Source of the DNA: a bacterium
Lineage (GTDB): Bacteria > Myxococcota_A > UBA9160 > UBA6930
NCBI GenBank assembly: GCA_024228115.1
Contig: JAAETT010000376.1
Location: 1-32,700, forward strand
Reading direction: 5' to 3'
DNA length: 32,700 nucleotides
Under the pieces are notes generated by a model that saw nothing but the letters and a program-made list of their open reading frames with translations, was not told the DNA's origin and did not search any database. The translations under genes were made by a program, and so were the position numbers. This document shows positions 4,586 to 24,460 of this stretch, piece by piece. The first letter of the stretch is position 1, and each line of letters opens with the position of its first letter.

Positions 4586-4587
4586 CA

Positions 4588-10285: not shown

Positions 10286-10391
10286 TTCTTCGCACCGTAC
10301 CCCTGCGCCGCCAGATTGGGGCGAACACTAGCAAGGCGCTCCCCGACGGCTCGACGAGGAGAGGGCAGACGTAGAGCTCGCGAACAGCTAC

Positions 10392-11330
10392 TCAAGGGTG
10401 CTCCTCCCGAAACGGCGGCGTTGGCGCCAGGCCGTCGGCGACCGCAAGGGCACGCGTAGGCGTCACAGGGTGATTCGGATATGCGTCGAGGGCGATTGCG
10501 GGCAGCAGGCGCTGGACAAGGTCCGAGAAGGTGAAGCCGTAGTCTCTCCCGTTCTGGCGACCAGTTGCAGCGACGATCGCATCGATCTGCTGCGGGGAGA
10601 AATCTAACGGAGAGAGCGCATTTGCGAGGACTGCCCGTCGCTGGGCTGCGTTGGGCCGCTGGAACGTCAGTACATCGGCCGCGCGGCGTCTCACTGCCGG
10701 GTCAAGAGCACCAAGACGGTTCGTGCACATGATAACCGCTGCGGGCGCCTTGCTGTTGGCGATCCGGTCCACGCCGCGGATGAACGCATTCACCCCTGCG
10801 CGGTCCTCGTGGTGCATTTGCGCGTTCTCCCGCGATTGGGCTAGGGCGTCGGCCTCGTCAACTAGGAGGATGACAGCTCCGCGTGCGGTACCGGAGGAGG
10901 ACATGAGCTTGCGCGCCTCATCGAGTGTGGCGTCGAACGCTGCGGAGAGAAGCTTCGTCATCTCGCCCACTCGCCCTTGACCTCGCGTCGAGAGGCTGAG
11001 CGGTAGGAGGGTGATGTCGATCTTCTCCTGGCGCGCAACCGCATCGCCGATGGTCTCGGCGAGCTCCGTCTTTCCTGAGCCTACGTCGCCTGCGAGGACG
11101 ATTAGCGGGGGACGCGACAAGACCACGTCGAGAAGTGCACCAGCGTGCGCGTGATGCTGTTTGGCCCAAGTCGCGAGACCCTGCGGGTTCACAAGAAGGC
11201 CGAGGATCTTGGTTAGGCGGTCCTTGTGGTCGTCGAGGCCGACAAGGCGCCCAAGCCTCTCCTGGGCGTCGCTGTCGGGAAGGTCGATACGATTCTCGAA
11301 GAGGTCGTCGAAGGAGAGATCGGACGACAT
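10392..11330 (-). CDS. cap6: CBASS Cap6: TRIP13/Pch2-like AAA+ ATPase
   Basis: This 312-residue AAA+ ATPase has Walker A GDVGSGKT (81-88), Walker B with D158-E159, sensor-1 N204 after VIMCT, and an arginine-finger region in LDPAVRRRA. In type III CBASS the TRIP13-like ATPase pulls apart the HORMA-cyclase complex and so switches off signalling; this role is taken from the family and its neighbours. The stop of the HORMA gene overlaps the start as TGATG. ATG 11330 is chosen, and an in-frame GTG at 11333 would add one residue. Position directly after a HORMA gene is strong support over a generic AAA+ assignment. Confidence 0.9.
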   Translation of the reverse strand: MSSDLSFDDLFENRIDLPDSDAQERLGRLVGLDDHKDRLTKILGLLVNPQGLATWAKQHHAHAGALLDVVLSRPPLIVLAGDVGSGKTELAETIGDAVARQEKIDITLLPLSLSTRGQGRVGEMTKLLSAAFDATLDEARKLMSSSGTARGAVILLVDEADALAQSRENAQMHHEDRAGVNAFIRGVDRIANSKAPAAVIMCTNRLGALDPAVRRRAADVLTFQRPNAAQRRAVLANALSPLDFSPQQIDAIVAATGRQNGRDYGFTFSDLVQRLLPAIALDAYPNHPVTPTRALAVADGLAPTPPFREEHP

Positions 11331-11845
11331 CACGAGGCCTTCACGCTTTGCCGATCAAGCGACCGGCCGCCTGCGGAGTAGATTCGATCGGAACGCAGGA
11401 CCCCGTTCACGGCGGGCTCCGGGGCGGATCCGCGCGTGATAGGGAGCTTTGACTCGAAGGTCTGCTGGTCGGCCGAGGAGAGCTGGTCCCATGCCGCGCT
11501 GTAGGTCAAGTAGCTGTAGAACGTGGCGCCGCTCGTATCGGCTCCGGGGCGAACGCGCCCCGGGTCATCATCGTCGGTGGTTGACCCGGCGAGATCGTGC
11601 GCGGTGTACCGGAGCGACGGCTCGATGAACGCTCCATCCCTGCGGAAGCCGTAGGTGACGGTCCCGAGATAGCCCTCCCTGAGGAGCTGAGTGACTTCGT
11701 CTTGGTAGGCGGTGATGGCGGCATCGCTGGGCTGGCCGTAGAAGCGCTGGAGACGTTTGAGGTCCGCCGCGACCTTCGCCGCCATATGTCTGGCGTGGGT
11801 GATCGTGAAGGTATCGGTCTCGGAGAACGTGTAGCTCGTCGTCAT
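11330..11845 (-). CDS. cap7: CBASS Cap7: bacterial HORMA-domain regulator
   Basis: This 171-residue protein starts MTTSYTFSETDTFTITHARH and continues with AADLKRLQRFYGQPSD, matching the bacterial HORMA family-1 N-terminus as I know it. In type III CBASS the HORMA protein closes around a peptide, then binds and activates the cyclase. The middle and C-terminal strands (TVTYGFRRDG, FYSYLTYS) fit the family, but I cannot verify the safety-belt region by eye. ATG at 11845 lies 9 nt after the cyclase stop, and its stop overlaps cap6, so the three genes are co-translated. There is one HORMA gene only, as in CdnC-type rather than two-HORMA operons. Confidence 0.88.
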   Translation of the reverse strand: MTTSYTFSETDTFTITHARHMAAKVAADLKRLQRFYGQPSDAAITAYQDEVTQLLREGYLGTVTYGFRRDGAFIEPSLRYTAHDLAGSTTDDDDPGRVRPGADTSGATFYSYLTYSAAWDQLSSADQQTFESKLPITRGSAPEPAVNGVLRSDRIYSAGGRSLDRQSVKAS

Positions 11846-11854
11846 GGTCGTGTT

Positions 11855-12820
11855 CTATGCCTGGAAGGAGGAGCCGAAGACCTTCTGCCAGTAGTAGACG
11901 GTCTCCTGCTTGGTGGGGGCCGCGAGGGCCGCATCGATGGCGTCACCTGCGTCAAGAGCGGCATCAACGAGCGCATCCGCCTGCGAGGACGTGTAGAGGC
12001 GGCTCACGTTGTTCTTTGCGTTGACCGGGTCGATGATCTGAATGCGCTCCGAGAACGTGCCGCAAGCGGATGGGCTGTAGTAGTCCGAGAACACGAGGCG
12101 TTCGCGCAGGTCGGTTTTTGCGATGTAGGTGAAGAAGTTCTGGAGCGCCTCGGGATAGTCGGAGAAGGCGGAGCCCTGGTCCGAGAGCCTCGCGAGGATG
12201 AGCTCGATCATGAACGACTTCAGGCGGAAGCCTTCGTTCTCGCGCTTGGTCTTGCGTGCCCAGTACTTCACGAGCCGGACAACCTGGGCGAAGTCCTTGT
12301 CATGCTTGCCCTTGCGAGCCCCGACGAACTCCAGGTGCCGTGGGATGCAAGTTTCAAGGAGGGAGCCGTCTTCCTGGCTGACCAGGTTCCCGTACCAGTT
12401 CGGGTCGCCGCTGTACAAGATGGGTACGACGTCGACGTCAAGCCCCGAGGCACGAAACGACACCGTCACGCAGTAGGTCTGAGGCGTGATCTGGTCGGGG
12501 CTGAAGTTTGGGAACGCCGTCCGCAGACGCTCAGCGAGGTAGTCGAGGAGCTTGGCGACCTCCGTGGGGGCGTCGGCGCCTTCGATGTAGCACGCGAGGT
12601 CTATGTCGTTCAGCGATCTGAGCGCGGTCCCCTTCGCGAGGCTCCCCGAGACCAGCATCTTCTTGAGGGAGAAGTCGGGATGCTCCTCGAGGTACGACTC
12701 GAGCTTTTCGCGCAGCCTGCGAGCCTGCGCCCGATGCTCGTTCGCTTTTTCCTGGGGGAGGTTGACCTTATCCTGGGCAAAGGACGCAAGGTCCGCGTGG
12801 TCGACGTGCTGGCGTGCCAA
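11855..12820 (-). CDS. cdnC: CBASS CD-NTase, CdnC-type cyclic oligonucleotide synthase
   Basis: This 321-residue nucleotidyltransferase has the cyclase signature GSLAKGT starting at residue 59, D72-I-D74, and a third metal aspartate in GLDVDVV (D128/D130). Closely similar CdnC enzymes make cyclic tri-adenylate-type signals when activated by a HORMA protein; the product here is not known. The start is TTG at 12820. It gives MARQHVDHADL, which lines up with the CdnC N-terminus as I recall it, and it is preceded by GGAG with 5 nt spacing. A start at 12883 would add 21 residues that look unlike the family. The cyclase leads the operon cdnC-cap7-cap6-cap4. Confidence 0.92.
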   Translation of the reverse strand: MARQHVDHADLASFAQDKVNLPQEKANEHRAQARRLREKLESYLEEHPDFSLKKMLVSGSLAKGTALRSLNDIDLACYIEGADAPTEVAKLLDYLAERLRTAFPNFSPDQITPQTYCVTVSFRASGLDVDVVPILYSGDPNWYGNLVSQEDGSLLETCIPRHLEFVGARKGKHDKDFAQVVRLVKYWARKTKRENEGFRLKSFMIELILARLSDQGSAFSDYPEALQNFFTYIAKTDLRERLVFSDYYSPSACGTFSERIQIIDPVNAKNNVSRLYTSSQADALVDAALDAGDAIDAALAAPTKQETVYYWQKVFGSSFQA

Positions 12821-13144
12821 GGCTGCTCCATCGTGGCCGCGTCGGCCCCGAGGGGATGACGCGGTAGCTGGTTCTGGACGCATAGCCCCCCGGCGTGACG
12901 CATGTGGTCACGCCAAGAAGCTTCGATTTGGGGGGATGCGCCCAGCGTCGCCGGGGACGGAACGGAGCTGGCCTCTCTCACCCTCTGTCGCCGTGGGAGG
13001 CTCACGACCCAGTGTCTCTGTGCACCGAGTGGAGTGTTGTCAAGCCGCGCGTTGGCGGAGGGGAGGAGATCTGCAACTCCATCGGCAACTATCTGAAATT
13101 GATACATGTTTCGGATCAAGACGTTTACTGCGGAATGAGGGCCT
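12821..13144. other. Gene-free stretch upstream of the CBASS operon
   Basis: No credible gene is seen in these 324 bp. It should hold the cdnC promoter on the minus strand. A perfect TTGACA lies at 13038-13043 (minus), but its -10 position reads poorly. The part from about 13085 to 13140 is more AT-rich and has TTGAT/ATCAA as a short inverted pair. It separates the defence island from the sigma-54 activator whose end is cut short at 13145. Confidence 0.5.
12892..12914. promoter_or_regulatory. Perfect 8-bp inverted repeat, candidate operator for CBASS
   Basis: GGCGTGAC at 12892-12899 is mirrored by GTCACGCC at 12907-12914 across 7 nt. It lies about 70-95 nt upstream of the cdnC TTG. The arm length and spacing suit a dimeric repressor or a hairpin in the leader. 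No regulator gene sits in the operon, so any binding protein is unknown. Confidence 0.4.
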
Positions 13145-14383
13145 TTAGTTGTAGAGCCCCTCGCGAGTAATCCCGAGCGCGCGCGCAGTGGCCGCTCGTC
13201 TTCCGTCGTGTCGGTCGAGTGCCTGGCGAAGGAGCCAGGCTTCGGCCTGGGTCAGGCTTTCGCGCAGGGTCGCGCCGCCTTCGAGGCCTTGGCTTTCGAT
13301 CGGGCCGAGGACCTGGTGCAGGCGTGCGGAGAGGCGTTCGGCGGGGATGAGATCCCCGCTCTCGGAGAGGGCGAGGGCACGCTGCATCTCGTTCTCGAGC
13401 TCGCGCACGTTGCCGGGCCAGGGATGGGAGAGGAGCAACCGTTCGGCTTCCGGCCTCAGGTCGCAGCCGATCCGGTTCTCGCGCTTTCCATGCAGGGCGA
13501 GGAAGTGGCGGGCCAGGGGGAGGACGTCTTCGCTGCGGCTGCGAAGCGGCGGAACATCGATCGGGAAGACGGCGAGGCGGTAGAACAGATCTTCGCGGAA
13601 CGCGCCGCGGGCGATTTCGCTGCGGAGATCGCGGTGGGTTGCGGCGAGCACCCGGGCGTCGACGCGTCGGGAGCGGTTTCCGCCGACGGGTCGGATTTCC
13701 CGTTCCTGGAGGACGCGCAGGAGCTTGACCTGGAGGATGGGGGAGGTCTCACCGATTTCGTCGAGGAAGATGGTTCCGCCGCTGGCCTCCTGGAAGAGGC
13801 CGGTCTTCGCGCGGTCGGCCCCGGTGAAGGCGCCCCGAACGTGGCCGAAGAGTTCGCTTTCGAGGAGTGAATCGGGAAAGGCTGCGCAGTTGAGGCCGAC
13901 GAAAGGCCCGTCGGCCCGATCACTTCCGATGTGGATCGAACGCGCGAGCACTTCCTTGCCGGTTCCGGTTTCTCCGGTGAGTAACACGGTGGCATGGGTG
14001 CGCTGGGCGTGGCCCACCAGTTCGAAGGTTCGATGCATCGCGGGGCCGCGACCGATCACATGGGCGAGCCCCGGCGGCCGCGCGGAAGCGGCCGGGCCAT
14101 TATTGTCCGGTTTGCCCAGGTCGGCGGGGGTGGGGTAGGTGCCTGGCGACGAGGTGACGAGCACCCGTCTTGCGCCGGCCTGGAGCAAGCGTCGGACGAC
14201 GCCGTCGCGGGTTTCGTCGGGAGCGTCCATGACGACGGCATGAAAGTCCGGCAGCGGGAGGGAAAGGGCGTCGTCGAGAACCGGGGTCCAGACCAGGTCG
14301 ACGTCGGGAGAAGTAGCCATCGGGCTCTCTTCCAGCCCGTTGGCGGTTCCGATCCACAAGACGGTATGCGGCGTTTCGTTCAT
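13145..14383 (-). CDS. Sigma-54-dependent transcriptional activator (NtrC family), C-terminally shortened
   Basis: This 412-residue bacterial enhancer-binding protein has three parts. Residues 1-85 are a short receiver-like domain with D53 at the expected phosphoacceptor place but no clear N-terminal acidic pair. The AAA+ domain has Walker A GETGTGKE (137-144), GAFTGA (184-189, the sigma-54 contact) and Walker B D208-E209. A Fis-type helix-turn-helix closes the protein. It stops after GITREGLYN, about eight residues before Fis-type domains normally end (usually a K-L-K-R-like tail), so the recognition helix is clipped. ATG 14383 is chosen because GAGGAA precedes it by 7-8 nt and upstream sequence in frame is not protein-like. 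The stop marks the edge of the defence island. Confidence 0.87.
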   Translation of the reverse strand: MNETPHTVLWIGTANGLEESPMATSPDVDLVWTPVLDDALSLPLPDFHAVVMDAPDETRDGVVRRLLQAGARRVLVTSSPGTYPTPADLGKPDNNGPAASARPPGLAHVIGRGPAMHRTFELVGHAQRTHATVLLTGETGTGKEVLARSIHIGSDRADGPFVGLNCAAFPDSLLESELFGHVRGAFTGADRAKTGLFQEASGGTIFLDEIGETSPILQVKLLRVLQEREIRPVGGNRSRRVDARVLAATHRDLRSEIARGAFREDLFYRLAVFPIDVPPLRSRSEDVLPLARHFLALHGKRENRIGCDLRPEAERLLLSHPWPGNVRELENEMQRALALSESGDLIPAERLSARLHQVLGPIESQGLEGGATLRESLTQAEAWLLRQALDRHDGRRAATARALGITREGLYN

Positions 14384-14422
14384 CGGGGATTCCTCGTGAA
14401 GAAGGGACGAACGCCTGGCAAC

Positions 14423-14437
14423 GCAAGCTCCATGCCG
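14423..14437 (-). promoter_or_regulatory. Candidate sigma-54 (-24/-12) promoter of the activator gene
   Basis: Read on the minus strand, CGGCATG-N4-TTGC matches the TGGCACG-N4-TTGC consensus at 9 of 11 defined bases, with the invariant GG and GC correctly spaced. The start site would fall near 14411, about 28 nt before ATG 14383. This suggests autoregulation by the activator it drives. Confidence 0.45.
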
Positions 14438-14503
14438 GGCGCCCGGGGCATGAGGGCGCCGTTCACCTTCGAAACGGCCAACTCTGGCCGGCCGAGGCCG
14501 GCC
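14438..14503. promoter_or_regulatory. Inverted repeats upstream of the sigma-54-type promoter
   Basis: GGCGCCC (14438-14444) mirrors GGGCGCC (14454-14460), and the self-complementary GGCCGGCC occurs twice with 2 nt between (14486-14493 and 14496-14503). The second pair lies about 75-92 nt upstream of the predicted start site and could be an activator site. In such GC-rich DNA chance is a real alternative. Confidence 0.25.
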
Positions 14504-14650
14504 CTGGCCACGCGCGAGCTGTTCGGATTGCGCGGCGGTGTCCGGAGACGACGAACGGGTCAATGGGTGACCGATTCTCGATCCACGAAGGGTGGCCCAG
14601 CGGGCACGCCGGAGAAGCGGCGATGCCCTGATCGCGCAACTGGCGGAGGG

Positions 14651-14666
14651 AGCCCGCCGACGGGCT
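14651..14666 (-). terminator. Short hairpin at the LysM gene stop
   Basis: AGCCCG and CGGGCT form a 6-bp perfect stem around a 4-nt loop that overlaps the TAG stop of the LysM gene. There is no T-tract, so terminator function is weakly supported. Confidence 0.25.
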
Positions 14667-15213
14667 AGGGCAGGGTCAGGATCTGGCCGGGGATGAGCCG
14701 GTCCGGATCCACGATCTGATCGCGATTGGCTTCCAGAATCGCAGCGGTATGCGCGGGCGAGCCGTACTGGTCTCGCGAGATCTGTGTGAGCCAATCGCCC
14801 TCGCGCACGGTGTACTGCCGCGGTCGATCTTCAGAGGGCACAGCCGGAGGAATCGTTACGGGCTCTGGATCAGCTGGCTCACTCGGAGCTGCTGCTTCGG
14901 GCTCGGGCAGTGCGCGCCCAGGAGTCGCGGCCGTTCGATAGGTCGGCGTCTGCAAGGAGTCGTCGGTGTCCGCGTCACGCTGCTCGGGTTCGGCCTTCTT
15001 GGCGGGCATGCCGGGCTCGCGCTGCTCCTCTTCGATCTCGACGATCAACACGTCGGGCCGCTCGCCGGGCGGAAGTGCGGGAGCCGAGACATCCGGTCGG
15101 TGTTCGGGTTGCGGAGAAGCGGGCGGCGCGCTTCGATGGGTGTCGCGCACGCAGGCAACGAATCCGACCATCGCAGCCGCCACGATCACAGCCGTTCTCG
15201 AAGCCGATCGCAC
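14665..15213 (-). CDS. LysM-domain envelope protein, probable lipoprotein
   Basis: This 182-residue protein has a short basic N-terminus, a hydrophobic stretch (about 7-20) and a cysteine at residue 21 in a FVAC context. That is an imperfect lipobox, so lipoprotein sorting is likely but not certain. Residues about 30-130 are a Pro/Glu-rich, low-complexity spacer. The last 50 residues are a LysM domain (YTVREGDWLTQIS ... IVDPDRLIPGQIL), which in known families binds peptidoglycan glycans. The GTG start at 15213 is chosen for its AGGGGGG Shine-Dalgarno and because it places the hydrophobic segment correctly; an ATG at 15270 would add 19 odd residues. It lies downstream of the repeat protein on the same strand. 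Confidence 0.82.
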   Translation of the reverse strand: MRSASRTAVIVAAAMVGFVACVRDTHRSAPPASPQPEHRPDVSAPALPPGERPDVLIVEIEEEQREPGMPAKKAEPEQRDADTDDSLQTPTYRTAATPGRALPEPEAAAPSEPADPEPVTIPPAVPSEDRPRQYTVREGDWLTQISRDQYGSPAHTAAILEANRDQIVDPDRLIPGQILTLP

Positions 15214-15316
15214 GTTCCCCCCTGAGTCCGATGCGCCGCCCTCGACGCGATCACCGCCAATGCGGCGCATCCGCGTTCGGGCATGCTCACCACACTTCCC
15301 AGGCCCCCCTGGAGTG

Positions 15317-18300
15317 CTAACGCCGTTCCCGCCAGAAGGGGTGAAAACGGCCGCAGCCGAGCTTACCCAGCGGGGTGCTCAAATCGGTGACGCCGCGCAC
15401 ATCGACGAGGGTCTGGCCTTCGAAGCAGCGATCCACCGTGCCGTCACGGGTCGAGTCTTCGCATTGAAGGGATACGGCCCCACCTTCGATGTATTGGATC
15501 ACGTCGGCACGGCCGTCTTTGTCGGTGTCGATCTCGCTCCGGCTGACGTGGCCGCCTTCGAAGAACTGGCGGATGTTGCCCTGGCCGTCACCGTTGTTGT
15601 CGATGAGGCCTTCGGTGATCGTGCCCCCCGACAACCGGTAGCGGATGTCGAGGCTTCGATTGGCGTCGCTGTCCACGCATTGACTGCGCGGGGCGCCGTC
15701 CGCACCGAGGACGACCTTCACGTCGGGGCGCTTCTTGCCCTCACTGACCAGCTCCTGGTGCGTGGGTGCGCCACTGGCATCGAAACGTGTGAGGACGGTC
15801 GGCCGGCCCGCCTGGCGCTGGTCTTGAGCCTGCCAGACCATGGCGCCGTTCTTCTGGTGGGACCACAGGTCGAACTTGCAGTCGGCGTTCTGGTCGACGG
15901 CTTGATTCGTAAGGTTGCCTGCGGCGTCGTAGCGTTCTTCGAGGTCGAAGCAGCCGCGCAGCTCGCGATCCTGGCGTACGAGGCTGGGTGTGCCGTCAGC
16001 GTTGAACTGCGTGAGCGAATCCTTCTTCCCGTCGAAGTTGCGATCCTCTTCCTGCCGGATCACCGAACCGTCCGCATTCCTCGTCACCCAGAGGTCCGGG
16101 TTGCCGTCCGCGTTGCGATCCTGGGTCTGCTCCTGGGTGCCCTTGGGCCCTAGCGCCACCTGGATTTCGAAGCTTCCGTCGAAATCGTCATCTTGCTCGA
16201 TGTGTGAGGGCTCGCCCTTCTCGAAGCGGGTGCGCACGTCGGGTTGGCCGTCGCCGTTGCGGTCGCGTTCGCTGCGGACGGGCGTACCGGCTTCCAACCA
16301 GGTCCTCATCTCGCGGGTTCCGTCGCCGTCGCCGTCCTCGGCAATCTCGATGGGCTGTTCGTCCGCTCCGAATGAGGTCTCGACATCCATCGTTCCGTCG
16401 AAGTTCCGATCTTCCTGCTGGGTGTGCTTCCGGCCGTCCTGGTAGGTGATGAGGATGTCCAGCTTGCCGTCGCCGTTGCCGTCCCGCTCCGAGCGCGTGG
16501 GCAGCCCCTGCTCCAGGTAGGTCGTCAGTTCGAATGTGCCGTCGAGATCTGCATCGTGTTCTTCACGAGAAACCGCGCCGCTCTCGTAGTGGCGGCGCAC
16601 GTCGGGCTGGCCATCCGCGTTGGTATCGGTCTCGTCGCGGACGGGAATCTCGTCCGGGCCGTAGAACACGATCTGGTCCACCTTGCCGTCGCCCGTGGTG
16701 TCTTTCTCCTGGCGGGCCCGGCGCCCATCTTCGAAGACCAGGAAGGTGTCCTTGTCGCCGCTCTCGTTGGTGTCGAGTTCCTGTCGAACCATCTTCCCGT
16801 CGCGGAAGAGGGTGATCGCATCGGGTTTCCCGTCGCCCGTCGTGTCGCGGAGCTCCCGCGCTTTCTGGCCGTCCTCGTATTCGACACTCACATCGAAGCC
16901 CTCGACCCCGCCGGTGGCGCGTTGCTCCGCGACGACCTGGCCCTTGGCGTCGAGACTGCCCTTCAGATCCGGCTGCCCATCGAAGTCTGAATCCTCTTCG
17001 AAGCGCACCGCCGTGCCGCCTTCGTAGAAGACCGTCCGGTCGGCTTCGCCGTCGGCGTTGCGATCCTCTTCGAGCTTCTCGGTCTGGCCTTCGGCGTTCT
17101 TGGTCACCCAGCGATCGACCTTGCCGTCGGCATCCGTGTCCTCGAGCACGCGGCGTTCATTGCCGGTCGCGACGTCCAGGGTGATGAACTTCTCGGAGTT
17201 CCCGTCTCCGTCGTTGTCCTGTTCCTGCTTCTCGAGCTGGCCCTTCGGGTCGTAGAAGTTGCGCAGCTCGAACTTCCCATCGCCATCTTCATCCAGATCG
17301 ACACGCAGGAGCCGGTCTTCCCCGTGGATCTCGATCCGGTCCGGCCGCCCTCGGCCGGCGCGGTCGATTTCGGTTCGCGCCAGCAGGCCGCCTTCGTAGC
17401 TGTTGCGGGTCTCGAAGGTGCCATCGAAATCGGTATCCAGTTGGCTCCGCAGCAGGGATTCGCCGTCGACGGCGTACTCGAAGACGGCATCGATCTCGCC
17501 ATCTTCGTTCTGGTCTTCTTTCTGTTCGAATCGGAGGCCGGCTTTGTATTCGACGAAGGTGTCTCTTCGTCCGTCCTTGTTCGAATCCGCCTCGGTCCGG
17601 AGGGTCATCTCGCCGGCGAACCAGGTCTCCAGGTCGACCCGGCCATCGTCGTCCTGGTCTTCCTCTTCGCGGGCCTTCTGGCCGTTCTCGTAGAAGCGGT
17701 GCAGATCCGTGCGCCCGTCATCGTCCGGGTCGAAGCTCTCCTCCGCACGTTCTCCGCTCGGCAGATACAGAACGATGGCTTCGGGCACGCCATCGAGATC
17801 TTCGTCTTTCACCTGGCGGTGCTCGTTGCCTTCATGGTAGGCCGATTCCGTATCGAATCGCCCGTCGCCCGTGGTGTCGGCCCGGCGAGCGGTGGTCTGG
17901 CCATTCCGGTAGTCGGTGACGACATCCACCTTTCCCGAGTGGTTCGTGTCCTCGTCCACGCGGGCCTTCTTGCCGTTCTCGTAGCGGATCGTGATATCGA
18001 AGCGGCCGTTGCCGTTCGTATCCTGTAGCTCGAGCTTCTTCGAGCCATCGGCATTGTATTCGGCACGGAGCTCCGGCTTGCGGTCTCCGTCCTGGTCTTC
18101 TTCGACGATCGAGGGCTCGCCGCCGGCGTAAGTGATGCGGCGCTCGATGGTTCCGTCGAAGTCCGGGTCTTCTTCCTTGCGCACGGGGATCCCGCCCTCG
18201 AAGAAGATCGTGGCGTCCGCATTGCCGTCAAAGTTGTGGTCGTCGCGTTGCTGGGCGGGTTTGCCGTTTTCGAAATCGATCCACTGGTCCTTGCGGCCGT

Positions 18301-18500
18301 CGGCGTTGGTATCCCTTTCCTGGTGTTTTGGTTTGCCCGAGGCATCGAATTGCATCCAGGTATCGATCTGGCCGTCGAAGCTGGTGTCCTGCTCGGCCGC
18401 GCTGGGCTTTCCGCCCGAGTAGGTGACGAACTCGTCATAGCGGCCGTCCCTGTTCGTATCGGATTTCTTCGAGCGCACGTTCTCGTCTTCGTCGAAATCC
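15317..18500 (-). repeat. Degenerate 72-bp tandem repeat array inside the repeat protein gene
   Basis: The DNA repeats with a period of about 72 bp (24 codons) through most of the gene. Recurrent codons for Asp-Gly-Asp loops show as gtcg/cgtc-rich blocks on the plus strand. Units differ in sequence, so the array is old and kept for protein function, not a recent expansion. Confidence 0.7.
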
Positions 18501-18598
18501 AGAACCGTAGGGAGACCCTGGGCGACGGCAGACGAGGGCATTGCGACGAAAACCGCGAGTACGAATGCGAGAGGAAGAAGAGCGCTAGTTCGAGACAA
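15317..18598 (-). CDS. Secreted protein of about forty calcium-loop-like tandem repeats
   Basis: This 1093-residue protein has a signal peptide (about 1-27, hydrophobic core LPLAFVLAVFVAM, cleavage after AVA). Nearly all of the rest is a repeat of about 24 residues. Each unit has an Asp-rich loop of the DxNxDGxxD type followed by a short strand ending in G-x-P/K and charged residues. The loops resemble EF-hand, dockerin or thrombospondin type 3 calcium sites, so a calcium-stiffened rod at or beyond the outer membrane is inferred; no enzymatic domain is seen. Start TTG 18598 overlaps the TonB-like gene by 14 bp and is the only start giving a full signal peptide, although no clear ribosome site precedes it. 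The overlap suggests coupling with the transducer. Confidence 0.78.
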   Translation of the reverse strand: MSRTSALLPLAFVLAVFVAMPSSAVAQGLPTVLDFDEDENVRSKKSDTNRDGRYDEFVTYSGGKPSAAEQDTSFDGQIDTWMQFDASGKPKHQERDTNADGRKDQWIDFENGKPAQQRDDHNFDGNADATIFFEGGIPVRKEEDPDFDGTIERRITYAGGEPSIVEEDQDGDRKPELRAEYNADGSKKLELQDTNGNGRFDITIRYENGKKARVDEDTNHSGKVDVVTDYRNGQTTARRADTTGDGRFDTESAYHEGNEHRQVKDEDLDGVPEAIVLYLPSGERAEESFDPDDDGRTDLHRFYENGQKAREEEDQDDDGRVDLETWFAGEMTLRTEADSNKDGRRDTFVEYKAGLRFEQKEDQNEDGEIDAVFEYAVDGESLLRSQLDTDFDGTFETRNSYEGGLLARTEIDRAGRGRPDRIEIHGEDRLLRVDLDEDGDGKFELRNFYDPKGQLEKQEQDNDGDGNSEKFITLDVATGNERRVLEDTDADGKVDRWVTKNAEGQTEKLEEDRNADGEADRTVFYEGGTAVRFEEDSDFDGQPDLKGSLDAKGQVVAEQRATGGVEGFDVSVEYEDGQKARELRDTTGDGKPDAITLFRDGKMVRQELDTNESGDKDTFLVFEDGRRARQEKDTTGDGKVDQIVFYGPDEIPVRDETDTNADGQPDVRRHYESGAVSREEHDADLDGTFELTTYLEQGLPTRSERDGNGDGKLDILITYQDGRKHTQQEDRNFDGTMDVETSFGADEQPIEIAEDGDGDGTREMRTWLEAGTPVRSERDRNGDGQPDVRTRFEKGEPSHIEQDDDFDGSFEIQVALGPKGTQEQTQDRNADGNPDLWVTRNADGSVIRQEEDRNFDGKKDSLTQFNADGTPSLVRQDRELRGCFDLEERYDAAGNLTNQAVDQNADCKFDLWSHQKNGAMVWQAQDQRQAGRPTVLTRFDASGAPTHQELVSEGKKRPDVKVVLGADGAPRSQCVDSDANRSLDIRYRLSGGTITEGLIDNNGDGQGNIRQFFEGGHVSRSEIDTDKDGRADVIQYIEGGAVSLQCEDSTRDGTVDRCFEGQTLVDVRGVTDLSTPLGKLGCGRFHPFWRERR

Positions 18599-19721
18599 GG
18601 GTGTTCGAGAAAGTGCCGATGAGGTTGTGATTGGCGAGGCAGCGAACCTGGGCGCCCATGTGCGGGAAGGGCGATGCTGCGAGCAGCGCATCCACGGCGG
18701 ATCTTGCCGCCGCAGGATCCGAAGGCGTGCCCTGGAACTCCACGTGGCTGGCCGAGCCTGCGGGATCGATGCGGAAGGCAAGGGTGGCCGATGAATCGGT
18801 CACGCCGGTCGGCAACGTCCAGCGACTGATGGTGCGATCCCGTACCTGGCTCAGATAGGCCTGGACCTGGGGCCGGGCGAGGCAGGCGTCGAGGCTCAGG
18901 TTGTTGAGGCCGGTTCCGGACCCGCCCGGGCCTCGACCGTTGTTGCTTCCCACTTTCATGTTCGGGTTGGCAACGATCCCGGTCTTCGCCCCGAACACAT
19001 CGCGGCCGGACGAGATGCCGTCACGAACGCTCGAGCCTCGCCCGAGGGAATCTGGCCGGCCCGTCCCCAGGGTGTTGCCGGAACTGACGACCTGTCGCGG
19101 GCCGCTCACCACACCGGTCGGTGCCTGGTGTTGGATGGGGCCGGCGAGGGCGGGGCCCTGGTAGTTGGTGACGACCGGCGCGACGACGGCGCTGACGACA
19201 GACGCGACGTTGCCGACCTGGTCCACCGAGACCGCGCGTTGGCTGATCTCGACGGGTGCGGCCGTGGGGACGACGGCCGCGGTATTGATCTCGACCGCCT
19301 GGGTCTTCTGGCTCATGTTCTGGATGACCGCGGCGTTCACGATCTGCGGTGCCATGGCCATGGGTGCCGGAGCGTAGTTCGCGGAGCTTTCGGCAAGCAC
19401 TTGCGGAGCCGGGGCAGGCTCTTCCTCGCCGACGACCTCCTCAATCGGGACGAAATCCAGGACCGGAACCTCTTCTTCTTCCACGATGCGGCTGGCGAGG
19501 AAGAGCAGGAGACCGATCATCAAGCCGTGGCCGAGCAGCGAGATCACGCCGGAGAGCCAGCTGCGCGTGCCTCCCTCGGGCTCGGGCATATCCGAACCGG
19601 GGAATGCGATCTCTCCGCCCGCGGCACCTGCACCGGCTAGCGAGCCGATTCCGCCGATGCGGCGGGTGTGCATCGGGTGCAGGCGCCTCGCACGCCGACG
19701 AACGACGAAGCCTTCGATCAC
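18585..19721 (-). CDS. TonB-like energy transducer
   Basis: This 378-residue protein has a cytoplasmic basic N-terminus and one membrane segment (about 56-79, GVISLLGHGLMIGLLLFLAS). A long Ala/Pro/Val/Gly-rich periplasmic linker (about 80-285) follows. The last 90 residues fit a TonB C-terminal-like domain (VRDRTISRWTLP ... ATLAFRIDPAGSASHVEFQG), with cysteines near both ends that could form a disulphide. It should carry proton-motive force from an ExbB/ExbD motor to an outer-membrane or surface partner. GTG 19721 is preceded by GGGGGA at about 8 nt. It diverges from exbB-exbD, and its 3' end overlaps the repeat-protein gene. The linker lacks the usual Lys-Pro repeats, so it is not classical TonB. 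Confidence 0.78.
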   Translation of the reverse strand: MIEGFVVRRRARRLHPMHTRRIGGIGSLAGAGAAGGEIAFPGSDMPEPEGGTRSWLSGVISLLGHGLMIGLLLFLASRIVEEEEVPVLDFVPIEEVVGEEEPAPAPQVLAESSANYAPAPMAMAPQIVNAAVIQNMSQKTQAVEINTAAVVPTAAPVEISQRAVSVDQVGNVASVVSAVVAPVVTNYQGPALAGPIQHQAPTGVVSGPRQVVSSGNTLGTGRPDSLGRGSSVRDGISSGRDVFGAKTGIVANPNMKVGSNNGRGPGGSGTGLNNLSLDACLARPQVQAYLSQVRDRTISRWTLPTGVTDSSATLAFRIDPAGSASHVEFQGTPSDPAAARSAVDALLAASPFPHMGAQVRCLANHNLIGTFSNTLVSN

Positions 19722-19993
19722 GACACATTCCCCCAGGTCTGAACTCTCGGAACCCGAAGGTTGTGACGTGGTTCCGACCCATGCTGCCGCTCTAGGAGAG
19801 GCTGCGGGAGAATCTCGCTCAGAAGAAGGCAGGGAAGACGCAAGTTACCGGCACCATTGTGGATTTTCTGACCCAAGTTCGATCCTATGTGAGCCACCCG
19901 GGGGTGTCAACGTGGCACTCACGTAGGTAAGGTAGGTCGACTTTCAGCCCGGTTGGTGTCAGTGGGTCCACCCCCGGAACGGAGAAATACACC
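19722..19993. promoter_or_regulatory. Divergent promoter region between the TonB-like gene and exbB
   Basis: These 272 bp separate two divergent operons and must hold both promoters. Ribosome sites are clear at both ends (GGGGGA for the minus gene, GGAG for exbB). A weak plus-strand box pair, TTTTCT-N16-TATGTG, lies near 19870-19900. No strong consensus promoter was seen, and no gene. Confidence 0.4.
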
Positions 19994-20692
19994 GTGAACA
20001 TGGAATTGAAAGACCTCCTGGAGCTGTTGCACCAGGGGCGCCTCACCGTTTATCCGCTTGGCATCTTGTCGGTGATCGTGATCGGCATCGCCATCGAGCG
20101 GTTCTGGCGGTATCGGGGGTTGGCTCGCACCACGCGGGATCTGACGCGAAAGCTCGTGGATAGCCTCGTGCGCCACGATCTCTCGGCGGCGCGCACGCTT
20201 TGCGAGGCCTCGAGCACGCCGATGGCCGAGGTTTTCGGCGAGGGACTGCGCTGGCGGAACATCGCATTGGAAGACCTGAACGAGGTTCTGAGCACCGCAC
20301 GCAATGAGGTGGTGACGGAACTTCGCCGCGGGCTCTGGTTCATCGGAACGATCGGATCCCTCTCGCCCTATATCGGTTTGCTGGGCACCGTGGTCGGCAT
20401 CATGGTCGCGTTCGGCGCCATCGCCTCGAGCGGAGACGCTGGTTTCGAGGTCGTTTCCGCCGGTATCTCGGAGGCGCTGATCGCCACGGCCGTGGGCCTG
20501 CTCGTGGCTATCGTTTCCCTCGCGTTGTTCAACTTCCTGCAGGTACGGGTCAACAACATCTCGTCCACGTTCACGCGGGCCAGCGAGCGCTTCGTTCAGG
20601 CGCTGCTCTTCGTCGAGGCTGGAACCAACGATTCGGCCAATGACCAAGAAGGGAAGCCGAGCCATGGCGCTCTCTCTCCCGCAAGAGGGTGA
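19994..20692 (+). CDS. exbB: MotA/TolQ/ExbB family proton channel protein
   Basis: This 232-residue inner-membrane protein shows the ExbB layout: membrane segment 1 near residues 17-36, a cytoplasmic stretch, then two helices, one in the SPYIGLLGTVVGIMVAF block and one in ALIATAVGLLVAIVSLALFNF. It forms the proton channel that with ExbD drives a TonB-type protein. GTG 19994 is preferred over ATG 20000 because GGAG lies 9 nt upstream of it. It overlaps exbD and diverges from the TonB-like gene, which is its most likely partner. TolQ is possible, but no TolA, TolB or Pal gene is near. Confidence 0.9.
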   Translation: MNMELKDLLELLHQGRLTVYPLGILSVIVIGIAIERFWRYRGLARTTRDLTRKLVDSLVRHDLSAARTLCEASSTPMAEVFGEGLRWRNIALEDLNEVLSTARNEVVTELRRGLWFIGTIGSLSPYIGLLGTVVGIMVAFGAIASSGDAGFEVVSAGISEALIATAVGLLVAIVSLALFNFLQVRVNNISSTFTRASERFVQALLFVEAGTNDSANDQEGKPSHGALSPARG

Positions 20693-21083
20693 TGATACCG
20701 GCGGCATCGTCGCCGAGATCAACATCACCCCGCTGACAGACGTCTTCCTCGTCCTGCTGATCATCTTCATGGTGACGTCTTCGGTCATCGCGAACACGGG
20801 CAAGCAGGTGAGCCTGCCCGAAGCTTCCGTGAGCAGCGCGACCGACAAGCAGGCCGTGAATGTGACGATCACCGAGGCCGGCGAAGTCCAGGTCAACGGA
20901 AGGAGCGTGCCCTACGACCAGCTTGGCCCGCACCTGAAGGTTGCCCTCGATGCCGCCGAGCAGAAGACCGTGATCCTCCGAGGTGATCGGATGGTCATCC
21001 TCGAAAAGGCCGTCTACGTCCTCGACCAGGCCCAGCTCAACGGAGCCAAGGGCTTCGCCCTGGCGACCAAGAAAGCGAAGTAG
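20664..21083 (+). CDS. exbD: ExbD/TolR family biopolymer transport protein
   Basis: This 139-residue protein has one membrane helix (about 22-45, ITPLTDVFLVLLIIFMV) carrying the essential aspartate D26, then a periplasmic domain of ExbD type. D26 takes part in proton passage through the ExbB channel. ATG 20664 is chosen because AGAAGGG lies about 10 nt upstream; an ATG at 20640 would add 8 residues and has no ribosome site. It overlaps exbB by 29 bp, showing tight coupling. A perfect palindrome follows directly. Confidence 0.9.
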   Translation: MALSLPQEGDDTGGIVAEINITPLTDVFLVLLIIFMVTSSVIANTGKQVSLPEASVSSATDKQAVNVTITEAGEVQVNGRSVPYDQLGPHLKVALDAAEQKTVILRGDRMVILEKAVYVLDQAQLNGAKGFALATKKAK

Positions 21084-21121: not shown

Positions 21122-24100
21122 CTAGAACGTGTACCGGATTCGCAGGAAGAACTCGTCGCGATCTCTCACCGCAGCGAGGCCATTCTCCACGAAGTCCTTG
21201 TTGGCGTGGCGGCCGACTCGATTCGAAAGCGCGTTCGGCACGAGCGGCATCGTCCGGGCTTCTTCTCGTCCCTGGAAGAGCGCGAAGCCGAAGGTCACGG
21301 AGAAATCCGACGAGTATCGGTAGGTCACTTGACTGATGGCGGCACTCGAATTCGACTGGAAATCGTAGACGAGCTGCACGCTGGGGTTCAGACGGTCGTC
21401 GAAGTAGCCCGTGTTCACGGCGAGGACGGCCAGGATGTTCCACGGGCCGTTGGTCGGGAAGCTCTCCTCATAACCCGAGGTGTACCGGAAGAACCACTGG
21501 GTGTTGATGAAGAAGGTCCGGTTGGCGTTCATGAAGTTGATGAACGTGGGCCGATCGACGGAGACGGTCAGGTTGAATTGATCGACCTCGGTCAAGCCCT
21601 CGACCTTGTCCCAATCCGCCAGGTGGACGTCGTTCTCCCAGGTGAACTCGACGCCGATGTTGGACTTGGTGTAGTCCTCTGCGAAGTCCATCGCGAAGCC
21701 CAGGATGTTCCGCTTCTCGTAGCGCAAGACGAGATCGCGGCCCCCATGCCAGGTGAAATCGCGACGCCCGAATCGCCCGTTCCCACCGGCTCGGATCGCG
21801 TTGCGCTGGACACCGGTGATCTGGAAGAACGATTGCACCGAGCTGCAGAACTGGGGCTTGGCGAACGAGCAGCCGTTCCTGCGGAACGGATGGGCGGCAT
21901 CGAAATCGCTCTCGGTCGGTCGGAGCGGGTCATCCGCGCTCGATAGCGCGACGAGTGCCATCAACAGGTTCCAGGACAAGATGCCCAACTCGGTCCGGAA
22001 GGCCTGGCCAACGAAGGGGTGGAGCGCACCGCCGGTCGAGCCGTCCACGCGCGGGTCGTAGCCGGAATCGCCCGGGCCGCGGCAGCCGGGCAGGATGACC
22101 ATGCTGCCACCGTGGTAACGGGTGCAGATCGGGCCTCCTTCGAAGCCGACCGTGCCAGGCTGGATGACGCCCCGATCCGTCGTGTCCCAATCCATGCCGA
22201 AGGTGCCCTCGACTCCGGGAAAGGATTGGAAGAGCGCGCTGGCCTCGGCGTTCAGCAGGTCCATCCCCTCGATGTCGCAGTTGGTGTCGTAGTAGGGCCC
22301 GCAGCCGAGCAAGGCCTCCTGCTCGTCCGTGAGGAACGGCGACAGCCCGTTGCCCAGGAAAAAGTTCGAGAGACCAGGGACGGCGCCGCCTGCGATCAGC
22401 GCAGCCTGCACATCAGCCGGGTAGTCCGTGAACAGGGCTTGCGCACCGTCGGCCGGATCCATCCACAACGGCACGAACACCGTGGGATCGATGGTACCCG
22501 TGAGGAGGTTGGAAAAGACCCGGCCAAAGGGAGCGTTCGCGGTGATCGCTGCCAATGTGGTCGGGGTGAAGTTGCCCAATGCGGGAAGGAACACCGCCCC
22601 GCCAAAGAGGTTCCCAGCTCCGCTTTGTCCCGACCCCATGGCGCCGACGAGGCCCACCACCGGCAGCGGCGCCGACTGAAGGCCCGGTGTGGCGTCATCG
22701 GTATCCACCAGTGCATGGCTGTTGAACACGGACTGGCCGCAGGCACTGAGATCCAGGGTGCTGAAGCCGATGCTGGTGGCGCAGATCATCGTGAAGACCT
22801 GCTGGTTCACGCTATGCCGCGTGAGTGCGTCCTTGCCTTGCAGGCAGGCCGCCTCGCGCCCGGTCCGACAGCTTCCATCCGCCATGGTGTGGCGGGGGCG
22901 GCCGGTCTTCGGGTCGACGTTCCGGGAGTAACGGAACAGCGTGTCCTGATACGGCATGTCCGTGAAGCCGTAGTAGTCGCTCACAGCGAACGAGAAGCGG
23001 TTGTAACGCCACTCGACCCGGACGCCTGCCTCGACACCATGCCAGCTGTTCCACGGGTTGGGCGGGCGACGCTCGCCGGCGACGGTGAGGCCCGTGAGCC
23101 CGTGGATGAACAAGCCGAAGGTCTTGTCGCAGACCGGATTCGGCGCATAGGGCTCGCCGCAGCGTCCGAGATCCGTCGGCTCGAACTGATCCATCAGCAC
23201 GACCAGTTCGGCGCGCACGTCCTCGAGCGGACCGACACTCCAGAACGACCACACGGCCCGGCCAGCCCACAAGCCGATGCGCGAATCCTCGAGGCTCGGC
23301 AACGAAGCGAGTGCCAGATCCTGGGGGTTCCACTGGTCCTGGTTGCGGAAGAGCTCCGTCTTGCCCCACACCACGGTCTGCTTGCCCAGGCGTAGCCAGA
23401 GCCGACTATCGAAGGCTTCGATGTCGAAATAGAGCTCTTTCAGCGCCTTTTCGTCCTGCTGGCTCGCGCCCTGGTTCCACTGCAATTCGTTGACCGTGAA
23501 GTTCTGGTCGAAGCTGTCGAACCGACCGTCGCGAAGGGCCGCGGCCAGACGCTCGTTCGGGTAGTAGACGCCACGCGCCTCGTGCTTCGGTGCCCATTCA
23601 TCCGCGCGGCGTTCCGGAGCGGGGCGATAGGGGAGGGCGCCGGCGCCGACATCCCCGGTGATCGGCGAAAGATCCATCGAAGAGAACGGGTTGGGCTTGC
23701 CGGCGAGTTTTCCGGTGGGACGGATCGTGCAGGCCGGCTGCCAGGGGCCCATGATCTGGGTACCGACGCCATCCATGCTGCCATGCCGCTTGCGGAAATT
23801 GAAATCGCAATCGTCGGCCAGGATCTCGGAGAAGTAGAAGGGAGCGGGGTCGTCCTCGTTGCCGAACACGCCGTCGGCCCCCGGCGAATCGAAGAGCGTG
23901 TCGACGCCTTGGATGCTGAAGAACGGTGAAGCCACGCGGGAGCCGCGGTCGCGATCCCGGAAGCGGTAGGGAAGGAATTCCCGCGGAATGTCGCGGAAGT
24001 AGCGCTCGTCCCCGTTGTAGAGCTGGCCGGTGGACCGGAAGCCGGCCCTACGCCCATCCGAGAGCCGCTTGGGCTGGCGTTCAGGGCGATCGCCATACAC

Positions 24101-24460
24101 GGAGACATTGGGGAAAAGCCCACACCCTCGGCGCCAGACGCAGTCGTAGCGGCCCTCGACGCGTGCGAATGCCGAAATCAAGTCGAAGGGGCCCCATCCA
24201 TCGGGAGCAATGTTCGCCTCGATCTCGATGTTGAGGATGTTGTACCACTGCGTCAGGTCGAGGCCGTCGGACATGTCGAGATCGCGCGCAATCGTGCGCA
24301 GCTGCATCTCGAATGCACCGTGGACCTCCACGCGATCTTCGAGGAACTCGATGGCGTTGGCCGAAGAAGCGGCGGCCAGAAATGCCAAGGCCCCGAGCGC
24401 ACTCGTGACGCGCGCTCGAAGACCCGACTTCGCGAACGTATGGCGACAACCACCCAGCAT
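21122..24460 (-). CDS. DUF1302 family outer-membrane protein
   Basis: This 1112-residue exported protein has a signal peptide (about 1-37, core LGALAFLAAASSANA). The N-terminal third has strand-rich, aromatic text including GKQTVVWGKTELFRNQDQWN, and the C-terminal third is regularly alternating beta strands ending in FFLRIRYTF. The final Phe is the usual outer-membrane insertion signal. DUF1302 proteins are predicted beta-barrels often tied to hydrophobic substrate uptake or export; the substrate here is unknown. At 1112 residues it is longer than many relatives because of a Gly/Asn/Cys-containing middle insert (about 540-800). ATG 24460 has a strong GGAGGGG ribosome site. It converges on exbD. 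Confidence 0.85.
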   Translation of the reverse strand: MLGGCRHTFAKSGLRARVTSALGALAFLAAASSANAIEFLEDRVEVHGAFEMQLRTIARDLDMSDGLDLTQWYNILNIEIEANIAPDGWGPFDLISAFARVEGRYDCVWRRGCGLFPNVSVYGDRPERQPKRLSDGRRAGFRSTGQLYNGDERYFRDIPREFLPYRFRDRDRGSRVASPFFSIQGVDTLFDSPGADGVFGNEDDPAPFYFSEILADDCDFNFRKRHGSMDGVGTQIMGPWQPACTIRPTGKLAGKPNPFSSMDLSPITGDVGAGALPYRPAPERRADEWAPKHEARGVYYPNERLAAALRDGRFDSFDQNFTVNELQWNQGASQQDEKALKELYFDIEAFDSRLWLRLGKQTVVWGKTELFRNQDQWNPQDLALASLPSLEDSRIGLWAGRAVWSFWSVGPLEDVRAELVVLMDQFEPTDLGRCGEPYAPNPVCDKTFGLFIHGLTGLTVAGERRPPNPWNSWHGVEAGVRVEWRYNRFSFAVSDYYGFTDMPYQDTLFRYSRNVDPKTGRPRHTMADGSCRTGREAACLQGKDALTRHSVNQQVFTMICATSIGFSTLDLSACGQSVFNSHALVDTDDATPGLQSAPLPVVGLVGAMGSGQSGAGNLFGGAVFLPALGNFTPTTLAAITANAPFGRVFSNLLTGTIDPTVFVPLWMDPADGAQALFTDYPADVQAALIAGGAVPGLSNFFLGNGLSPFLTDEQEALLGCGPYYDTNCDIEGMDLLNAEASALFQSFPGVEGTFGMDWDTTDRGVIQPGTVGFEGGPICTRYHGGSMVILPGCRGPGDSGYDPRVDGSTGGALHPFVGQAFRTELGILSWNLLMALVALSSADDPLRPTESDFDAAHPFRRNGCSFAKPQFCSSVQSFFQITGVQRNAIRAGGNGRFGRRDFTWHGGRDLVLRYEKRNILGFAMDFAEDYTKSNIGVEFTWENDVHLADWDKVEGLTEVDQFNLTVSVDRPTFINFMNANRTFFINTQWFFRYTSGYEESFPTNGPWNILAVLAVNTGYFDDRLNPSVQLVYDFQSNSSAAISQVTYRYSSDFSVTFGFALFQGREEARTMPLVPNALSNRVGRHANKDFVENGLAAVRDRDEFFLRIRYTF

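What the first reader, a model, noticed from the sequence alone, without database searches (positions are those of the whole stretch)
15317..18598. About forty diverged 24-residue Asp-loop repeats in one protein
The DxNxDGxxD loop recurs with a near-constant period but sequence-diverse linkers. It does not clearly equal the EF-hand, dockerin or thrombospondin type 3 pattern, so it may be its own repeat class.
Basis: partly seen in the sequence, partly recalled or inferred. Interest (0 to 1): 0.5.

Follow-up and report, generated by a model that had tools for sequence, protein, structure and literature searches.

The report
Calcium-loop ribbon beside TonB-type motor
A secreted bacterial protein built from 42 stacked hairpins, most carrying a predicted calcium-binding loop, has kept almost the same number of repeats across a bacterial class and sits beside genes for a TonB/Tol-type membrane motor, which suggests a sized working part of that machine rather than a variable adhesin.

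Summary
The minus-strand gene 15317-18598 encodes a secreted 1093-aa protein with 42 tandem 24-26-residue repeats; 34 of 42 loops fit a relaxed Dx[DN]xDGxxD rule. No Pfam family reaches its cut-off. The one named sequence relative is NCBIfam Lsa25.6 (E 7e-21, but 75 of 150 bits). AlphaFold gives a single-layer stack of beta-hairpins (8-repeat model pLDDT 93.6), closest to OspA and MORN arrays, with the Asp loop joining consecutive hairpins. Two things go beyond the finding. First, the repeats are frozen: orthologues occur in 71 of 90 genomes of the class and in none of those sampled from the rest of the phylum, and 28 of 39 genomes examined have exactly 42 repeats, down to about 42% identity. 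Second, in 64 of 66 genomes holding both, it lies directly behind a TonB/TolA-like gene, with exbB and exbD divergent upstream in 19 of 22 loci, the other three being cut short. I read it as a metal-stiffened, fixed-length periplasmic ribbon serving a dedicated TonB/Tol-like motor. Metal binding and physical contact are inferred, not shown.

The parts
15317..18598 (-). REP: secreted 42-repeat protein, 1093 aa, TTG start
   Evidence: colinear orthologues
18521..18598 (-). Sec signal peptide (residues 1-26, cut placed by eye after AVA; no lipobox)
   Evidence: sequence read directly; orthologues with a sequenced N-terminus also have a hydrophobic stretch there (by eye)
18461..18520 (-). N-terminal cap, PTVLDFDEDENVRSKK, roughly conserved as VxLxYDxxExLxEK (by eye); two short strands in the full-length model, at low confidence
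15428..18460 (-). 42 tandem hairpin repeats (residues 47-1057), about 9-residue Asp loop + 6-residue strand + tight turn + 7-residue strand
15824..15970 (-). repeats 35-36, metal loops replaced by a conserved pair of Cys loops (C883, C907), likely disulphide staple
   Evidence: a Cys in loop 35 in 31 of 31 and in loop 36 in 31 of 32 comparable sequences
15317..15427 (-). C-terminal tail with conserved LxCGxFxxFW-type motif (C1082, perhaps paired with C974)
   Evidence: motif in 30 of 34 aligned sequences; C974 and C1082 both present in 32 of 34
18585..19721 (-). TonB/TolA-like protein (one N-terminal TM segment by eye, TonB-like C-terminal domain); its stop overlaps the REP start by 14 bases
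19882..19910 (-). sigma-70-like promoter match TTGACA-17-TAGGAT upstream of tonB-REP (consensus match only)
   Evidence: 1 found in 15150-20050, 0.3 expected
19994..20692 (+). ExbB/TolQ proton-channel subunit, divergent
   Evidence: PF01618 E 7e-31, over cut-off; TolQ model E 1.9e-32, below its cut-off
20640..21083 (+). ExbD/TolR subunit, divergent
   Evidence: PF02472 E 1.8e-26, over cut-off; TolR model E 3.9e-22, below its cut-off
14665..15270 (-). LysM protein with possible lipobox (by eye), directly downstream; found beside REP in few other genomes, so an optional neighbour
   Evidence: 3 of 22 loci, 2 of 21 genomes

Best explanation
REP is a Sec-exported, soluble periplasmic protein that folds into one continuous single-layer antiparallel beta-ribbon of 42 stacked hairpins. 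About 34 Dx[DN]xDGxxD loops, one between consecutive hairpins, each hold a divalent cation, most likely Ca2+. The metal neutralises the strongly acidic chain and stiffens the ribbon; disulphides lock the C-terminal end. REP is the dedicated partner of a class-specific TonB/Tol-like energy-transducing complex (ExbB-ExbD plus a TonB/TolA-like protein encoded in the same locus). The motor pulls or turns the TonB-like protein, which docks on REP, probably at its N-terminal cap or its conserved C-terminal tail, and REP carries that force over a set distance to the outer membrane, the peptidoglycan or a surface partner. Shown by sequence or computation: the repeats, leader, colinear conservation, near-fixed repeat number, gene linkage. 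Predicted: the fold. Inferred: metal occupancy, disulphides, binding to TonB, mechanical role, location.
For: 42 repeats. Ligand positions are the most conserved in the repeat across orthologues (mean commonest-residue share 0.94, 0.81, 0.89, 0.84 at positions 1, 5, 6, 9; all others 0.70 or less). The hairpin stack is predicted at pLDDT 93.6 for 8 repeats, all five models 92.9 or more, with OspA Z 11.8 (rmsd 4.7 over 173) and MORN1 Z 9.6 (rmsd 5.1 over 177). Repeat number 42 in 28 of 39 genomes and 39-43 in all but one of the rest. The k-th repeat is the unique best match of the k-th repeat in 662 of 1300 comparisons, same-index identity 0.49 against 0.26. TonB-like gene adjacent on the same strand in 64 of 66 genomes that have both. 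exbB and exbD divergent in 19 of 22 loci (18 of 21 genomes), the other three having under 2.0 kb upstream. Of 90 genomes 66 have both REP and the TonB-like gene, 14 neither, 10 one only. A TolB over cut-off lies with an ExbB-family gene on another contig, so this is an additional system.
Against: No physical or metal-binding evidence. The full-length model has pTM 0.34, three of its five models have mean pLDDT under 40, and its last ~170 residues are of low confidence, so overall length and curvature are unknown. The TonB-like domain is below the Pfam cut-off (20.3 against 22 bits). By textbook strand spacing (recalled) a straight ribbon would be about 40 nm, more than many periplasms, so it must curve, lie along the envelope or reach outside. 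11 of 39 genomes do not have exactly 42 repeats. 638 of 1300 repeat comparisons have a tie or a better match at another index. Linkage does not prove contact. Genus g34 (0 of 9) lacks the protein.
Confidence: 0.5

Rival explanations
1. Surface adhesin like leptospiral Lsa25.6: the repeats are displayed outside and bind host or environmental macromolecules.
For: Only named sequence relative is NF050087 Lsa25.6 family adhesin, E 7e-21; Lsa25.6 was reported to bind laminin, plasminogen and fibrinogen (PMC7662565, passages read).
Against: Half the family cut-off; no lipobox or surface anchor seen by eye; repeat number nearly fixed and repeats individually conserved across a class, unlike the variable arrays I would expect of adhesins; constant linkage to ExbB/ExbD/TonB.
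Confidence: 0.15
2. The ribbon closes into a hollow shell like Rhs/YD-repeat cocoons or teneurin, enclosing a cargo or forming a chamber operated by the motor.
For: Best Foldseek matches of the full model are full-length T6SS Rhs cores of similar size (8qjd_B E 4e-20, 1064 columns) and teneurins. A fixed length suits a closed object.
Against: TM-scores 0.08-0.11 and rmsd above 50 for the Rhs rows; 12-13% identity; no Pfam RHS-repeat match at E up to 10; OspA and MORN sheets superpose over most of the fragment; no cargo domain found in the protein.
Confidence: 0.08
3. Metal sponge: REP buffers or captures Ca2+ (or lanthanides) in the periplasm and the motor serves uptake of that metal.
For: 34 loops and net charge about -116; the two best PDB matches to an 8-repeat profile are an EF-hand domain protein and lanmodulin (E 5.6e-5 and 8.6e-5).
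Against: The lanmodulin match looks like loop composition (its fold is helical, recalled); a sponge need not keep 42 individually conserved repeats; no receptor conserved at the locus (the barrel 21122-24460 occurs beside REP in one other genome of 21).
Confidence: 0.1
4. An ordinary member of a known calcium repeat family (EF-hand, dockerin, thrombospondin type 3, FG-GAP/VCBS propeller).
For: The DxDxDGxxD loop resembles that of integrin-type calcium blades (recalled; PMC3123361 passages); FG-GAP_3 E 0.0095 on one 8-repeat fragment.
Against: All below cut-off; period 24 with one hairpin per repeat, no helix of four or more residues and an open sheet in the models.
Confidence: 0.03

Closest known systems
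Lsa25.6 family adhesin (NCBIfam NF050087, Leptospira)
   Same: Same kind of Asp-loop repeat, detectable by sequence (E 7e-21, 6 stretches)
   Different: Model is 196 positions long against 1093 aa; REP reaches half its cut-off, shows no lipobox, has 42 repeats and a motor neighbourhood
MORN repeat arrays (TbMORN1 and relatives, junctophilin)
   Same: Predicted fold: single-layer stack of hairpins, period 24 against 23
   Different: No MORN sequence match; in MORN the link between hairpins is 6 residues and the hairpin loop 5, here the link is a 9-10-residue metal-type loop and the turn mostly 2 residues
OspA single-layer beta-sheet (Borrelia, and engineered extended forms)
   Same: Best structural superposition, Z 11.8, rmsd 4.7 over 173 residues
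   Different: 11% identity; no metal loops and a shorter sheet (recalled)
Dx[DN]xDG calcium motif and calcium blades (integrin, FG-GAP)
   Same: Same ligand pattern (PMC3123361 passages)
   Different: In blades the loop sits at propeller blade tips; here it joins consecutive hairpins of an open ribbon
Tol-Pal / TonB-ExbBD systems
   Same: ExbB/TolQ, ExbD/TolR and TonB/TolA-like genes together
   Different: REP follows the TolA-like gene, where TolB stands in the textbook tol operon (recalled); the genome has a TolB on another contig
Rhs/YD-repeat shells and teneurins
   Same: Hairpin after hairpin; local Foldseek similarity
   Different: No closed shell shown, no sequence match, no cargo domain found

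Membership tests
Lsa25.6 family (NF050087) | score at or above the curated 150 bits | tested here: not met
   74.7 bits
Lsa25.6 family (NF050087) | recognisable repeat units | tested here: met
   E 7e-21, 6 stretches
MORN repeats | MORN sequence motif | tested here: not met
   no MORN match for REP or five fragments at E up to 10, with HMMER's filters on; MORN_2 only E 0.059 in a paralogue
MORN repeats | stack of single hairpins in one layer | tested here: inconclusive
   MORN1 Z 9.6, rmsd 5.1 over 177, on a predicted model
EF-hand / dockerin | helix-loop-helix, family profile | tested here: not met
   no helix of four or more residues in the models; no Pfam match at E up to 10, filters on
Thrombospondin type 3 | TSP_3 profile | tested here: not met
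   no Pfam match at E up to 10, filters on
FG-GAP / VCBS calcium blade | profile over cut-off, propeller | tested here: not met
   FG-GAP_3 17.0 of 26.9 bits on a fragment; model is an open sheet
Dx[DN]xDG calcium motif | D, D/N, D at positions 1, 3, 5, G at 6 and an acid at 9 | tested here: met
   34 of 42 loops under a relaxed rule (S/T/E also allowed at 3, N/S at 5, N at 9), conserved in orthologues; the strict D.[ND].DG..D form in 17
Dx[DN]xDG calcium motif | metal actually bound | not testable with these tools
   needs purified protein
TonB/Tol energy-transducing system | ExbB/TolQ and ExbD/TolR subunits | tested here: met
   PF01618 and PF02472 over cut-off
TonB/Tol energy-transducing system | TonB/TolA C-terminal domain | tested here: inconclusive
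   TonB_2 20.3 of 22 bits; TolA E 7e-6 below cut-off; an orthologue TonB_Cterm 20.9 of 27.1 bits
TonB/Tol energy-transducing system | physical contact of REP with the TonB-like protein | not testable with these tools
   only linkage shown
Rhs/YD shell | closed hollow shell | tested here: inconclusive
   local similarity only, TM 0.08-0.11, full-length pTM 0.34

The most novel reading that the evidence does not exclude
A previously undescribed class-wide envelope machine: a PMF-driven ExbB-ExbD-TonB-like motor whose working arm is a metal-loaded, 42-hairpin ribbon kept close to one length by selection, a molecular ruler or drive rod of a new repeat type (a calcium-loop counterpart of MORN/OspA sheets).
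Probability: 0.35. Interest if true: 0.85.

Novelty: new variant of a known kind. Interest (0 to 1): 0.6.

Why it matters
Long tandem-repeat surface proteins usually gain and lose units quickly (general knowledge). Here about 42 units have kept their own identities over a whole class, next to a motor that couples the inner-membrane proton gradient to the envelope. If confirmed, it would give TonB/Tol systems a new kind of mechanical partner, add a context for the Dx[DN]xDG loop, and supply a metal-dependent single-layer beta-ribbon of defined length that is testable and possibly useful for protein design.

Tried and rejected
EF-hand, dockerin, TSP3 and FG-GAP/VCBS membership: searched in Pfam up to E 10 with HMMER's filters on, none over cut-off. 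A conserved 325-aa gene on the same strand upstream (19919-20896): its conservation by tblastn is only the antisense of exbB/exbD, which lie on the other strand. TolB replacement: the genome has a TolB over cut-off on another contig, so REP does not simply replace it. Two-repeat super-period: lags 48/49 are not stronger than 24/25. The sliding-block alignment A1 only realigned identical overlaps and was not used. No match was found in the phylum sample outside the class at E 1e-30. With the Lsa25.6 model, 23 of 188 genomes sampled from the phylum match at E 1e-6, none over cut-off; 6 of the 23 lie outside the class, in open frames of 206-497 aa; none of 14 control genomes rings at that E, one (Lactococcus lactis) at E up to 1. 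Paper searches: (34 papers, 20 listed; none; 7; 2) showed no paper that by title or start of abstract treats this protein or the combination; two searches were also uninformative. Absence from print is claimed for those searches only. The first motif pattern was wrong and was corrected.

Points on counts. The 33 orthologues are among the best-scoring ones, so full-length proteins are favoured; six loci from weaker-scoring or other families were added by choice, one of them (G034) a second copy of a genome already present, hence 39 genomes from 40 sequences, the window included. L039 was left out of the statistics and the loop counts because of its 156-residue insertion and abnormal C-terminus; it is counted. 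L043 and L063 appear to be the same contig (same length, same matches), so 22 loci are 21 genomes. The alignment covers all 42 repeats in 27 of 33 (L039 among them); the notebook entry said 25, and 27 is the recount. In 'absent' means below the thresholds: G027, counted as lacking REP, has a piece at E 1e-39.
Full report
Observation. The gene lies on the minus strand, 18598 to 15317, and encodes 1093 residues. The TTG at 18598 begins a hydrophobic Sec leader with a cut placed by eye after AVA and no lipobox. Segmentation gives 42 consecutive units of 24-26 residues with the pattern D-x-N-x-D-G-x-x-D-x(4)-Y-x-x-G-x(5)-E-x. The motif count is far above shuffled sequence (36 against mean 1.4). 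34 of 42 loops keep a plausible ligand set. The mature protein is 120 kDa, pI 4.4, net charge about -116.

Known families. Pfam gives nothing over cut-off. NCBIfam gives Lsa25.6 family adhesin at E 7e-21 but 74.7 of 150 bits. In PDB sequence searches the best matches are an EF-hand domain protein and lanmodulin (E about 0.002 with the protein, 5.6e-5 and 8.6e-5 with an 8-repeat profile, which also gives a secreted esterase at 1.4e-4). Two further proteins of the same genome, of 460 and 476 aa with possible lipobox leaders, carry about eight and seven such repeats at their C-termini (by eye); the second also has DUF6802 at E 0.00015, below cut-off.

Fold. The full-length AlphaFold model (three sequences) has pLDDT about 62-90 over most repeats but pTM 0.34, a poor last 170 residues, and only two of its five models are usable (mean pLDDT 68, 65, 40, 37, 36). 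An 8-repeat fragment with 12 rows gives pLDDT 93.6 and pTM 0.83; its alignment A2 mixes repeat registers, so the confidence may be flattering. Each repeat is a loop of about 9 residues, a 6-residue strand, a tight turn and a 7-residue strand. The fragment superposes on OspA (Z 11.8, rmsd 4.7 over 173), on MORN1 (Z 9.6, rmsd 5.1 over 177) and, over about 95 residues, on the sheet of TarM-type glycosyltransferases (Z 9.6, rmsd 2.5); for repeats, Z values of this size can reflect a shared arrangement only. The full model's best Foldseek matches are Rhs cores and teneurins, with TM of 0.11 or less. MORN repeats are 23-residue hairpins with a 5-residue loop and a 6-residue link (PMC7725318, passages read); here the link is longer, carries the metal motif, and the turn is tight.

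Frozen repeats. At E 1e-40 the protein is found in 71 of the 90 genomes searched in its class; at E 1e-30 in 72 of 377 sampled from its phylum, all 72 listed as own genus, family, order or class. Among 33 high-scoring orthologues 27 cover all 42 repeats in the alignment, and 26 have no more than 6 inserted and 6 deleted residues over 1011, down to 42% identity. Counting repeats in 39 genomes gives 42 in 28; the others have 43 (1), 41 (3), 40 (3), 39 (3) and 36 (1, L039, with an abnormal C-terminus); one of these, L076, starts at a contig end. Repeat k matches repeat k as unique best in 662 of 1300 comparisons (1 in 41 by chance), with 0.49 identity against 0.26 for other pairs. The units are therefore old and individual, not recently amplified. 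Loop ligands are the most conserved positions. In loops 35 and 36 the metal motif is replaced by Cys in 31 of 31 and 31 of 32 comparable sequences; C974 and C1082 occur together in 32 of 34; C1046 and C1058 occur together in 11 of 34 and never singly. These pairings suggest disulphides and an oxidising location. The C-terminal tail motif is kept in 30 of 34.

Neighbourhood. The gene directly upstream encodes a TonB/TolA-like protein whose stop overlaps the REP start by 14 bases. Divergent from it are ExbB/TolQ (19994-20692) and ExbD/TolR (20640-21083). In 22 loci from 21 other genomes exbB and exbD lie divergently 2.0-3.0 kb upstream of REP in 19, and the three without have under 2.0 kb of upstream sequence; the TonB-like gene was found in 21, and for the remaining one. 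Of 90 genomes, 66 have both REP and the TonB-like gene, 14 neither, 5 only one, 5 only the other; in 64 of the 66 they are adjacent on one strand, and in the other two REP is at a contig end. Fisher p is 1e-8, or 0.002 without genus g34, which lacks both in 9 of 9; the genomes are related, so these values overstate independence. The genome also has a TolB over cut-off with an ExbB-family gene nearby on contig C425, and two more ExbB-family genes elsewhere.

Mechanism. Leader, cysteine pairs, near-fixed length and motor linkage point to a periplasmic part of a dedicated envelope motor. I propose that the TonB-like C-terminal domain grips an edge of the ribbon (N-terminal cap or C-terminal tail) and that the metal-stiffened ribbon transmits force to a partner in the outer envelope. 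The steps from 'linked' to 'bound' and from 'bound' to 'driven' are inference. With textbook strand spacing (recalled) 84 strands would span about 40 nm if straight; twist would shorten it.

Literature. A survey of Dx[DN]xDG contexts (PMC3123361, 12 of 20 passages seen) describes several folds; the words solenoid and beta-hairpin were not found in its main text. Lsa25.6 binding data come from passages of PMC7662565. Searches pairing the motif with ExbB/ExbD, single-layer sheets with calcium binding, DUF6802, or TonB with tandem repeats found nothing on this protein.

Verdict. A real, conserved, unusual protein: a new variant of the single-layer hairpin-repeat kind, in a setting with a TonB/Tol-like motor that I did not find described in those searches.

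Noticed in passing
window 8756-12883 (-): CBASS set with HORMA and TRIP13: oligonucleotide cyclase, HORMA, TRIP13-like AAA protein and a SAVED-PDDEXK endonuclease-type effector.
   Followed up: partly
window 2871-6531 (+): Three genes matching Lamassu LmuA, LmuC and LmuB models and the Pfam families CTD7, MC3 (ABC-3C) and DUF3732.
   Followed up: partly
window 45-2804 and 6548-8647 (+): Type III DNA methyltransferase (PADLOC E 0) and a UvrD-like helicase beside the defence genes, so a defence island abuts the REP locus.
   Followed up: partly
window 21122-24460 (-): 1112-aa DUF1302 protein, possibly an outer-membrane barrel, next to exbD; among 22 loci found only in the two copies of one close relative.
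   Followed up: partly
window 13145-14794 (-): Sigma-54-dependent activator; a tblastn match to it lies downstream of REP in 15 of 22 loci, one of them weak (28% identity). A regulatory link is untested.
   Followed up: no
L011:7214-8596 and L012:6091-7521: Two paralogues, probably lipoproteins, with about eight and seven of the same repeats at the C-terminus by eye.
   Followed up: partly
L045:2628-5902 and similar clusters in other loci: Genes matching GldA and GldF models (below cut-off, scanned in L045 only) sit just beyond exbD; blastp clusters place relatives in several other loci but not in the window.
   Followed up: partly
genomes of genus g34: All 9 genomes of one genus lack both REP and the TonB-like gene at the thresholds used, an apparent loss or replacement.
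   Followed up: no
L028-L032, L034-L038 and others, loop 1: In 15 of 33 sequences the first loop carries a Cys; by eye these also have a Cys in the N-terminal cap, suggesting a second disulphide staple.
   Followed up: no
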